From Salipiger bermudensis (GTDB lineage Bacteria; Pseudomonadota; Alphaproteobacteria; Rhodobacterales; Rhodobacteraceae), in the NCBI RefSeq assembly GCF_020171625.1, contig NZ_JAIUZY010000005.1, forward strand, positions 372,001-436,000: a DNA stretch of 64,000 nucleotides, read 5' to 3'. The notes beneath the pieces were generated by a model. The model was not told where the DNA came from. It did no database searches and saw only the letters and a list, made by a program, of their open reading frames with translations. How positions within the stretch are numbered: the first letter of the stretch is position 1; each line of letters opens with the position of its first letter. Both the position numbers and the translations under genes were made by a program. Shown in pieces: positions 38,709 through 41,363 of the stretch.

Positions 38709-39372
38709 CGGTCCACCCCCGCAAAATGTCACAGTGATTCGCCGCTTTGAGCGCGGGGGCCGCGTTTTGCCGTCTGCGACGCGGCGAAGCTGCAATCTCA
38801 GGTATTTCCTAACGGTAGCTAAATACCGGATTTCGCGGTATACGCCCGTATGCCGCAGCGCAGCGGAAAATTTTCTGGACTTTGAGCGCGTCGTGATGTG
38901 TCGTGCGCTTCACAGGATACAAGGTCGACCCGCCGGGAGGAGGCGGGCCGACCGTCAGACGGATGGCGCTGAAAAGGGAGAGGGCCATCCTGTCGAGTAC
39001 CGGTCGCCCCTGGGGAGGTTTTGGGGCGGCCGGGCGTCTTCTACCGACCTAATCGCTCTGTCCTGAATCGCAACTCTGTCGTTGCCGCAAACCCGCCACC
39101 TGCGACCAATTGGCATATCTGCTGCACATCTTTTCAGCGCAGATCCCGCCAAAAGCGCGCCGCGCGCACAGCGAACGAGATCACGTCCTAGTCGTGTAAA
39201 CCTCTTCGAAACCCGTCCAGGGGTATCGAAGTCTTGGTTGCGCTACCGTTTCGTGCTAAAAAGAAGACCCGTCACTGCTCGGACGGGTTGCCACACAGGA
39301 AGGCCCACTCACTGGACAGCGCGTCTGTCCACGTCTTCCTGCCTGTTCAGCAATCCTTAGGGAGAGGATCAC
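38709..39372. other. 664-bp non-coding interval after tRNA-Thr
   Basis: No protein gene is supportable here. The interval contains three stem-loops with pyrimidine-rich minus-strand loops (38923-39031, annotated separately) and, just before the 56-codon gene, two + strand hairpins: ACCCGTC / GACGGGT at 39267-39288 and GGACAG / CTGTCC at 39314-39330. The latter could form a structured 5' leader. No convincing promoter was found. Confidence 0.6.
38923..39031 (-). ncRNA. Candidate anti-Shine-Dalgarno hairpin RNA (cuckoo-like), three stem-loops
   Basis: Read on the minus strand from 39031: stem GGCCGCCCC / GGGGCGACC (one G-U) with loop AAAACCTCCCCA; stem GGATGGC / GCCATCC with a 16-nt loop containing CCTCTCCC; then stem of 12 bp (38953-38923, one G-U) around TCCTCCC, the whole tip reading CCTCCTCCC. 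Cuckoo/CcsR/alpha-r14 RNAs of Alphaproteobacteria consist of adjacent stem-loops exposing CCUCCUCCC. Strand is inferred from that family. No clear promoter was seen, so it might belong to a longer transcript from 39827. Confidence 0.55.
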
Positions 39373-39543
39373 ATGACATTTTTCAATCGCGAACAATCCG
39401 CCGCCGTCGATACGCTGCTCAAGCGCGGCATGTCCGACTTCGACATCGCGCGCAGCGTCTGCGCCGACAACGAAGACCCCGAACTGCTGCTCGAGGCAGT
39501 CTCGACCCAGCGCGAACGCCGCGAGCGTTCCAGCGCGCTCTGA
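39373..39543 (+). CDS. Small protein of 56 residues, unknown function
   Basis: An ATG at 39373 preceded by AGGGAGAGG at ideal spacing opens a 57-codon frame. The protein is helical and charged: M-T-F-F-N-R-E-Q at the start, L-L-K-R-G-M-S-D-F-D-I-A-R-S-V-C in the middle, P-E-L-L-L-E-A-V, and an Arg/Glu-rich end. G-M-S-D-F-D-I-A resembles a short HTH-like helix turn, but I would not assign a fold. Codons show the expected GC-rich third positions. It lies between two hairpin RNA candidates encoded on the other strand; its G-rich ribosome binding site is a potential target of their CCUCC loops. Confidence 0.65.
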   Translation: MTFFNREQSAAVDTLLKRGMSDFDIARSVCADNEDPELLLEAVSTQRERRERSSAL

Positions 39544-39714
39544 CCCGTACACACGCAAACACCGACCGCGGGCGGCGATGGGTCGCCCACGGTCCCGTCT
39601 AGGGCTACGGCCAGACACCTTCACTCCACATTCGCAGCACGGACCGACGCAACGCCATGACAGGGCGATGCGCGACTTGACGTGTCGCGGTGTGGGTATG
39701 GCAGTCTAAGGGGG

Positions 39715-39827
39715 GGAGGAGCGCGGCGACCCTCAGGGAGGAGGAGAGAGGGCCGCCGCTGATTTCCGGGGTTCAGGGAGGAGGAGAGAACCCCAGGAAA
39801 CTTCTAGACACCGTGTCGGCGTCGTTG
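39715..39827 (-). ncRNA. Twin-hairpin anti-Shine-Dalgarno sRNA (cuckoo / CcsR-like)
   Basis: On the minus strand two stem-loops follow each other. Hairpin 1 (39800-39763) has stem TTTCC+GGGGTTC / GAACCCC+GGAAA with one bulged base. Hairpin 2 (39759-39723) has stem GCGGCGGCCCTC / GAGGGTCGCCGC with one G-U pair. Both present the identical 13-nt loop TCTCCTCCTCCCT, which contains CCUCCUCCC, the hallmark of cuckoo RNAs (CcsR1-4 in Rhodobacter sphaeroides, alpha-r14 in rhizobia). Another CTCCTCCCCCC run follows hairpin 2. The stems differ while the loops are identical, the expected sign of selection on the loop. The ends are estimates. Confidence 0.78.
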
Positions 39828-39833
39828 AGGAGC

Positions 39834-39862
39834 ATTTAGGGTCTGCCGCGATGCGGAACAAG
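39834..39862 (-). promoter_or_regulatory. RpoH-type promoter of the twin-hairpin RNA
   Basis: On the minus strand CTTGTT (39862-39857), a 15-bp spacer and CCCTAAAT (39841-39834) mirror the hslV promoter CTTGTC-N15-CCCCATAT in this window. The predicted start near 39827 lies 27 nt before the first hairpin. CcsR RNAs of R. sphaeroides are known to be driven by RpoHI/RpoHII, which supports strand and identity. Confidence 0.65.
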
Positions 39863-40021
39863 ACCTCTTTCTGCAAGGCAGCATTGAAATTTTTGCATGG
39901 CCTTTCCGGCACATGGAGGTTTCCCTCGTGACCGCACGTCCTGCGAGCCGGCGGCGGGGGCCCACGGAAGACCCCCGCCACGTCCGGCTCAAGCAGAAAG
40001 ACGGACCGGTCGTACAGACCG

Positions 40022-40276
40022 AAACTCGTCACATCGACAACACTCGTACCGTCAAAACTGGCACCCGACGGCCAACATGGCCGTGACCATTTACCCACTC
40101 GTTACGCGAACAGACACTCGTACACCCTTCCCGGACAGAACCTTGCCCCAAACACACAGGGCCAACCTGTCCTGTCCAGGTCACTCGCTACCGCACTCCC
40201 CGACACACTCGTGACCGCACGGAAAAGAACACTCGTTAACAAACATCCCGAAACACTCGTACCGAACCTCCTTGGC
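40022..40276. repeat. Array of ACACTCGT-type direct repeats
   Basis: The core (A/C)ACTCG(T/C) recurs with CTCG(T/C) at 40025, 40043, 40098, 40117, 40184, 40208, 40232 and 40256; a further weaker CTCGT is at 39925. The last four units are exactly 24 bp apart; the pairs 40025/40043 and 40098/40117 are 18 and 19 bp apart. Several continue as ACCGCAC or ACCG. Only the 8-bp core is conserved. On the minus strand the array lies upstream of the cuckoo-RNA promoter, so regulator binding is possible. Confidence 0.75.
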
Positions 40277-40323: not shown

Positions 40324-41334
40324 TCAGCCCGCCGCGCGCCGGTTTTCCACCGACCCGCCCAACCGCTCTGCGATCAGGTTGTTCCACGCCGCAGCGAATT
40401 CCGTTGCGGCGCCCGTGGCCCGGCTCTTGTCGGTCGCCTCGGCGCCGGAGCGCAGGGCGAGCGAGAGCGCGTTGCTCCAGCTTGCGATGCCGTGTCCGGG
40501 CACGAAGCGGGCATCGGGTCCGGCGCTGTCGCGCAGCCCGTCGACATCGGCCACCACCAGCTTGCGGCCCGCGGCCCGCGCCTCGAGCGCCACCAGCCCG
40601 AAGGCCTCCCAGCGCGAGGGCATGGCCACCAGATCGACGGCCCGCATCGCCGCCTCGGGCGATCGCGCGTGGCCGTGGAAGGTGATGCGGGAATCTCCCT
40701 CGGCGAGGGCGCGCAGCGACATTTCCTCGGCGCCGGTGCCGAAAATCTCGAGCCGCAGCGCGGGGTCGCGGATCTCGCGGACGGCGCGGATCAGCACGTC
40801 GAAGCCCTTTTGCCGATCGAGCCGCCCGATGGCGCCGATGGTGCACCCCTCCGGGCGCGGCGCGGGCAGGGCGCGGAAGCTGCTCAGATCGACCGCCGAG
40901 GGGATCACCCGCAGCGCCTGCGGCTGCACCAGCCGGCGCGCGGTGAGCCAGTCACCCTGTGCGTGGCTGACCGCCACCACGGTGTCGAACAGCGCGTAGG
41001 CGTTGCGCAGCAGGGTGAAGAACCGCATCTTGAATGGCACGTTCAGCGCCGTGAAGGCCTCGGTGTAGCTGTGCTCCACATGCACCAGCGGCAGGTGGGC
41101 ATGGCGGGCGCGCAGGGAGACCAGCGCCGGCAGCCGCCGCCAGCTCACCGAGAGATGCGAGACGATCATGTCGGCCTGAACCGCGGGGATGCCCTTGTTG
41201 CGTGGCACGGCGCGGATTTCGTGACGGCCGGCCTGAGCCATCAGCGGCGAGGCGTAGATGTGATCCAGCACGCGCATGACTCCGCCGGGCGTGGTGTCGT
41301 CGACAAGGTGAACGATGTGGGGAAGCTTGGTCAT
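40324..41334 (-). CDS. Glycosyltransferase family 4 (GT-B) protein
   Basis: 336 residues. The GT-B acceptor half has V-D-D-T-T-P-G-G-V-M-R-V-L and H-V-E-H-S-Y; the donor half has I-G-A-I-G-R-L-D-R-Q-K-G-F-D-V-L-I, then the E-x7-E-like block S-R-W-E-A-F-G-L-V-A-L-E-A. It adds a sugar from a nucleotide donor to a growing lipid-linked oligosaccharide at the cytoplasmic face. The ATG at 41334 has AAGGAGA upstream. Last gene of the flippase-GT2-GT2-GT4 operon. Confidence 0.9.
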   Translation of the reverse strand: MTKLPHIVHLVDDTTPGGVMRVLDHIYASPLMAQAGRHEIRAVPRNKGIPAVQADMIVSHLSVSWRRLPALVSLRARHAHLPLVHVEHSYTEAFTALNVPFKMRFFTLLRNAYALFDTVVAVSHAQGDWLTARRLVQPQALRVIPSAVDLSSFRALPAPRPEGCTIGAIGRLDRQKGFDVLIRAVREIRDPALRLEIFGTGAEEMSLRALAEGDSRITFHGHARSPEAAMRAVDLVAMPSRWEAFGLVALEARAAGRKLVVADVDGLRDSAGPDARFVPGHGIASWSNALSLALRSGAEATDKSRATGAATEFAAAWNNLIAERLGGSVENRRAAG

Positions 41335-41363
41335 CACGAAACTCTCCTTCGGCAATCGAACAC

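What the first reader, a model, noticed from the sequence alone, without database searches (positions are those of the whole stretch)
39715..39862. Twin-hairpin anti-Shine-Dalgarno RNA behind a heat-shock promoter
Two adjacent stem-loops with unrelated stems carry the identical 13-nt loop containing CCTCCTCCC on the minus strand. The promoter CTTGTT-N15-CCCTAAAT has the same spacing as the hslV promoter in this window. This matches CcsR/cuckoo RNAs, which are RpoH-dependent stress RNAs in Rhodobacter sphaeroides. There they follow a DUF1127 gene; here no such gene is visible, so this would be a differently organised locus.
Basis: partly seen in the sequence, partly recalled or inferred. Interest (0 to 1): 0.85.

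Follow-up and report, generated by a model that had tools for sequence, protein, structure and literature searches.

The report
Stand-alone twin-hairpin anti-Shine-Dalgarno small RNA
This stretch of a marine Salipiger genome encodes a small regulatory RNA with two hairpins that carry the same ribosome-site-blocking loop; it belongs to a known family but stands alone, is one of many scattered copies in this genus, and carries a promoter that points to a LysR-type activator as well as, or instead of, a heat-shock switch.

Summary
The two hairpins are real, and nearly identical in two sister species with sharp conservation edges. The RNA fits the published cuckoo definition (2-4 hairpins with CCUCCUCCC loops). 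It falls below Rfam's cut-offs for ar14 and CcsR1; so does every other copy in this genome for ar14. Three things were not in the finding. (1) The same genome holds the canonical DUF1127 operon with seven tandem units, and a second stand-alone copy. At least 53 stand-alone copies lie in 17 of 20 Salipiger genomes; other genera have almost only arrays. (2) Each stand-alone unit has an extra 5' hairpin, often with a GNRA loop. (3) At -61 to -47 the promoter carries CAATGCTGCCTTGCA, 13/15 identical to the published Brucella VtlR/LsrB box; the 53 copies share this register, and DUF1127 operons of many genera carry the box too. The genome encodes an LsrB-like regulator. The heat-shock core is plausible but undecided: TTG...CTA-NN-T fits R. 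sphaeroides RpoHII and alpha sigma-70 alike, and the CCC is not conserved. Expression, sigma factor, regulator and targets are untested.

The parts
39872..39886 (-). LysR-type (VtlR/LsrB-like) box CAATGCTGCCTTGCA, -61 to -47 if the A of the -10 element is -12
   Evidence: 13/15 identity to the B. abortus VtlR motif quoted in PMC12595884; one of only five one-mismatch sites in the genome; 0 of 20000 shuffles as good and same register in 53 copies
39887..39900 (-). upstream conserved CCATGCA element giving a second T-N11-A frame (TGCAAAAATTTCA) that overlaps the box
   Evidence: conserved in sister species and in the consensus of 53 copies (GCCATGC); role inferred
39857..39862 (-). -35 element CTTGTT (TTG at -36 to -34)
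   Evidence: sequence; TTG aligned in most stand-alone copies
39834..39841 (-). -10 element CCCTAAAT (family pattern NNCTANNT)
   Evidence: sequence; position-wise counts over 48 copies; sigma factor undecided
39807..39823 (-). 5' hairpin H0, 7-bp stem GACGCCG/CGGTGTC; transcript start inferred at about 39825-39826
   Evidence: MFE fold; 47 of 53 copies have a stem of score 5 or more in the leader versus 17% of shuffles, with many compensatory stems and often GNRA loops
39762..39801 (-). hairpin H1, loop UCUCCUCCUCCCU (anti-SD)
   Evidence: fold; compensatory pair changes in 53 copies
39723..39759 (-). hairpin H2, 12-bp stem, same 13-nt loop (anti-SD)
   Evidence: fold; compensatory pair changes
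39708..39722 (-). pyrimidine-rich 3' tail GCTCCTCCCCCCCTT, probable 3' end; not a canonical U-tract terminator
   Evidence: about 15 nt after H2 are 83-92% C/T in 53 copies, then about 50%; conservation stops at about 39710

Best explanation
The locus is a self-standing gene for a trans-acting small RNA of the cuckoo (CCUCCUCCC-loop) family, about 115 nt, starting near 39825 on the minus strand and ending in the C/U-rich tail near 39710. A LysR-type activator of the VtlR/LsrB family binds the -61/-47 box and drives a TTG...CTA-NN-T core promoter read by an RpoH-type or the housekeeping sigma factor. The RNA presents two CUCCUCCUCCC loops that pair with GGGAGGAG Shine-Dalgarno sequences and keep ribosomes off a set of mRNAs, probably rich in transport and catabolic genes. 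It adds dose and independent control to the DUF1127-linked array, which has a similar box but a CCCCATNT -10. Shown here: structure, conservation, copy number, box and its register, presence of a homologous regulator gene. Inferred: transcription, regulator binding, sigma factor, targets and mode of repression.
For: Fold and z-score; ar14 and CcsR1 matches; compensatory changes in 53 relatives and in H0; hairpins 95-100% identical in two sister species with sharp edges; 53 stand-alone copies with one promoter layout; VtlR-like box: the only exact genome hit is the DUF1127 operon promoter, and one of five one-mismatch hits is this promoter; array promoters of many genera carry it; LsrB-like LTTR with 51% identity to a trxB-linked LTTR of another alphaproteobacterium, next LTTR in the genome 34%, best PDB hit LsrB 9HH1 (PMC11975290); NfeR1 (ar14) and AbcR1 are LsrB-activated with boxes at -72/-57 and -61/-49 (PMC10746234, PMC8844928) and VtlR activates DUF1127 genes (PMC12595884); GGGAGGAG-ATG genes include 7 solute-binding proteins among 22 Pfam-annotated, against 1 of 20 for AAAGGAG.
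Against: No expression data exist here. The box is degenerate in most stand-alone copies (mean 9.2/15); those inspected that match well are the window and its two orthologs. No LTTR-binding test. No canonical terminator. The core promoter cannot be assigned to one sigma factor. The target list is a simple pattern scan of the first 30 of 48 sites with one control; its enrichment is weak (one-sided p about 0.03, worked by hand).
Confidence: 0.6

Rival explanations
1. One reading: an RpoH-dependent CcsR-type stress RNA whose promoter is a heat-shock promoter, without need of a LysR activator.
For: CTTGTT-N15-CCCTAAAT has C-37, TTG, C-14, T-13, A-12 and T-9, all features of R. sphaeroides RpoHI/RpoHII logos (PMC3441632); hslV in the window has the same spacing; three RpoH-like sigma factor matches in the genome, one over the curated cut-off; R. 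sphaeroides CcsR are RpoHI/HII dependent (PMC10253847).
Against: CCC is not conserved in orthologs or across copies (4 of 48); the same pattern fits alpha sigma-70 CTTGAC-N17-CTATAT (PMC8844928); a conserved LTTR-like box is left unexplained.
Confidence: 0.25
2. A decayed or unexpressed duplicate of an array unit.
For: Copies are scattered and lineage-specific; the locus is found only in the S. bermudensis group.
Against: Hairpins and loops are the most conserved part of the region, pairs are kept by compensatory change and the promoter layout is kept.
Confidence: 0.07
3. A 3'-UTR or terminator element of the upstream glycosyltransferase gene (40324-41355, minus strand), processed from its mRNA as CcsR is from the DUF1127 mRNA.
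For: Same strand, about 500 nt downstream of that gene's stop.
Against: A conserved promoter lies between gene and RNA; the other copies share the promoter but lie in different places in the genome.
Confidence: 0.06

Closest known systems
Cuckoo RNA family (Reinkensmeier and Giegerich 2015; paper not held, definition taken from citing papers and memory)
   Same: Adjacent hairpins with identical CCUCCUCCC loops and variable stems
   Different: Adds a 5' hairpin without the motif; Salipiger-specific dispersal as stand-alone genes
CcsR1-4 of Rhodobacter sphaeroides (Rfam RF02791)
   Same: Two hairpins, same loop, same bacterial family; the own-genome array is the CcsR-type locus
   Different: Not linked to DUF1127/CcaF1, single unit, own promoter; 46.8 bits against gathering 65.3
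alpha-r14 / NfeR1 of Sinorhizobium meliloti (Rfam RF02344)
   Same: Stand-alone gene, same loops, LTTR box upstream of the core promoter (LsrB at -72/-57 in NfeR1)
   Different: Two motif hairpins instead of three, no motif-bearing third hairpin, 54.3 bits against gathering 58.8; box about 10 nt closer to the start
VtlR/LsrB regulons of Brucella, Agrobacterium and Sinorhizobium
   Same: Box sequence and position; small RNAs and DUF1127 genes as targets
   Different: In Salipiger the LTTR gene is not next to trxB, and regulation is untested

Membership tests
Cuckoo RNA family | 2-4 adjacent hairpins, each loop with CCUCCUCCC | tested here: met
   53 relatives
Cuckoo RNA family | stems variable while loops are constant | tested here: met
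   loop columns invariant, stem pairs with compensatory changes
CcsR1 (RF02791) | score above Rfam gathering cut-off (65.3 bits) | tested here: not met
   46.8 bits, E 2.5e-10
CcsR1 (RF02791) | co-transcribed downstream of a DUF1127 gene | tested here: not met
   no DUF1127 gene found near the locus; the one found with a tandem array is at G000 C4
CcsR1 (RF02791) | RpoHI/RpoHII-dependent expression | tested here: inconclusive
   core matches RpoH logos and sigma-70 alike (PMC3441632)
alpha-r14 / NfeR1 (RF02344) | three hairpins each with the motif | tested here: not met
   only two; the third model hairpin is absent in the alignment
alpha-r14 / NfeR1 (RF02344) | score above gathering cut-off (58.8 bits) | tested here: not met
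   54.3 bits, E 4.1e-9; none of the own-genome copies passes
VtlR/LsrB regulon | VtlR/LsrB box upstream of the core promoter | tested here: met
   13/15 match at -61/-47
VtlR/LsrB regulon | VtlR/LsrB ortholog in the genome | tested here: met
   C1:168074-168937, E 2.6e-92; best PDB hit 9HH1; homology only, no tree was built
VtlR/LsrB regulon | direct binding and expression dependence | not testable with these tools
   needs EMSA and a deletion strain

The most novel reading that the evidence does not exclude
A VtlR/LsrB-type regulator, described as unique to Rhizobiales (PMC11975290), controls the whole anti-Shine-Dalgarno RNA regulon in Rhodobacterales: both the DUF1127-CcsR operon across genera and a set of dispersed stand-alone RNAs in Salipiger. 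That would join the LsrB small-RNA circuit of Rhizobiales and the RpoH/CcsR circuit of Rhodobacter into one ancestral network.
Probability: 0.5. Interest if true: 0.68.

Novelty: new variant of a known kind. Interest (0 to 1): 0.5.

Why it matters
Anti-Shine-Dalgarno loop RNAs are studied in Rhizobiales as NfeR1 (LsrB-activated, stand-alone) and in Rhodobacter as CcsR (RpoH-controlled, DUF1127-linked). A bacterium with both arrangements and a shared regulator box offers a direct way to test whether they are one network, and why one genus keeps one to six extra stand-alone copies. No paper in the held library mentions CcsR together with LsrB or VtlR.

Tried and rejected
Rfam gathering search of the window: only tRNA-Thr. 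Weak ar7, 6C and GP_knot2 matches are probably by-products of the C-rich loops. A trxB-lsrB operon in Salipiger: rejected, trxB is followed by a sulfate adenylyltransferase/APS kinase-like gene (named from its sequence, not scanned). First idea that the promoter is plain sigma-70: withdrawn after reading the RpoHII logo. First MAFFT alignment of array and stand-alone units was misaligned in the loops and not used; RNAalifold on A2 missed H0 because the leader was misaligned, so H0 was tested separately. Intrinsic terminator: no U-tract seen. Key papers PMC4615179, PMC8034643 and PMC4402390 are not held.

Full report
The observation. On the minus strand of 39715-39862 there are two stem-loops with different stems and the same 13-nt loop UCUCCUCCUCCCU. 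Folding is far better than for shuffles (z -5.85). The promoter-like CTTGTT-N15-CCCTAAAT is there, and the hslV promoter of the window has the same spacing.

What family. In a focused search the best Rfam matches are ar14 (54.3 bits, E 4e-9) and CcsR1 (46.8 bits, E 2.5e-10), both below gathering. All other copies in the genome also fall below the ar14 cut-off, so the cut-off is not decisive. The RNA meets the cuckoo definition (2-4 adjacent CCUCCUCCC-loop hairpins), but not the three-hairpin ar14 definition nor the DUF1127 linkage of CcsR.

Where else. The genome is a Salipiger: HemY is 93 and 91% identical in two genomes named S. bermudensis. The same genome holds the canonical operon, a 69-aa DUF1127 gene (Pfam 45.7 bits) followed by seven twin units, the last hairpin carrying the same loop and followed by a T run (L013:4334-5262), and a second stand-alone copy (L014:5108-5195). 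A DNA search of 20 Salipiger genomes finds array and dispersed copies; 53 stand-alone units in 17 genomes (1-6 each) were read in full, and a few more were not. With a model built from them, 28 genomes of other genera in the family give almost only hits clustered in one place; G026, G032 and G043 have weak second sites. Among the neighbourhoods fetched, the window locus is shared only by the two S. bermudensis genomes.

Conservation. Between the window and these two, the hairpins are 95-100% identical, while sequence just 3' falls to 25-33% and sequence upstream of the promoter to 23%; the LTTR-box stretch is 80% and the -35/-10 stretch 57%. In the 53-copy alignment 13 of 19 consensus pairs show compensatory change. 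A third hairpin, immediately downstream of the inferred start, is found in 47 of 53 leaders, against 17% of shuffles, with different but matching stems (GACGCA/TGCGTC, GGCACG/CGTGCC, GAACATT/AATGTTC) and often a GNRA loop. After H2 comes a tail of about 15 nt, 83-92% pyrimidine.

Promoter. The stand-alone copies share a layout: GCCATGC, a box gCA-N3-CgGgTcTGCa, TTG, a CTGC-N3-GCAG dyad in many copies, and NNCTANNT. The box register -61/-47 is where similarity to the VtlR motif CAATGCAGCCATGCA peaks (mean 9.2/15, background 3.7; window 13/15; 0 of 20000 shuffles as good). Genome-wide, the only exact match to TGCATRGCNGCATTG is the DUF1127 promoter, and one of five one-mismatch sites is this promoter. 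Array promoters across the genus and many other genera of the family carry the box with a CCCCATNT -10. The VtlR motif is taken from PMC12595884; LsrB boxes at -61/-49 (AbcR1, PMC8844928) and -72/-57 (NfeR1, PMC10746234) are experimentally supported in S. meliloti. An LTTR with 51% identity to a trxB-linked LTTR of another alphaproteobacterium is present, its next paralog being at 34%; its best solved relative is A. tumefaciens LsrB 9HH1 (PMC11975290, which calls LsrB unique to Rhizobiales). This is homology evidence; no tree was built.

Sigma factor. R. sphaeroides RpoHII promoters favour C-14 T-13 with A-12 and TTG at -36/-34; RpoHI favours C-37 and T-9 (PMC3441632). Stand-alone copies have T-13 in 41/48, A-12 in 48/48, C-14 in 27/48 and T-9 in 40/48 (the anchor was scored partly on CTA, so these counts lean towards it). 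The window copy has all of these bases plus C-37. Alpha sigma-70 (CTTGAC-N17-CTATAT) fits about equally. Three RpoH-like sigma factors match. So the heat-shock claim is possible, not shown.

Targets. GGGAGGAG 3-10 nt before ATG occurs 48 times, against 7 in the reversed control. Of 22 Pfam-annotated genes among the first 30 sites, 7 are solute-binding proteins (5 DctP, 2 Peripla_BP_6), against 1 of 20 for AAAGGAG. This agrees with predicted ABC-transport targets of NfeR1 (PMC10746234) but is a weak test.

Verdict. A real, conserved, stand-alone member of the cuckoo kind in a Salipiger-specific expansion, most likely activated by a LsrB/VtlR-type regulator, with RpoH involvement open.

Noticed in passing
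window 40041-40260 (+): Six of nine CACTCGT heptamers of the window cluster here on one strand between the RNA promoter and the glycosyltransferase gene; three copies in L116, one in L117. Unexplained.
   Followed up: partly
window 39373-39543 (+): 56-aa ORF without Pfam or NCBIfam match, conserved in S. bermudensis, convergent with the RNA; its leader is 80-97% conserved.
   Followed up: partly
window 38918-38960 (-): A 12-bp stem with a TCCTCCC loop gives a weak ar14 hit (33.8 bits).
   Followed up: no
G000 C3:483469-483569 and C7:159136-159244 (L011, L012): Two more weak ar14 hits (31.1 and 30.5 bits), not examined.
   Followed up: no
L013:4644-5207: Spacers between array units contain a short GGGC...GCCC inverted repeat that may correspond to the 5' hairpin of the stand-alone units (read).
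   Followed up: no
G000 C1:168074-168937 (L190): LsrB/VtlR-like LTTR not linked to trxB; homologs of similar identity in all four Rhodobacteraceae genomes tested, in tension with the statement that LsrB is unique to Rhizobiales.
   Followed up: partly
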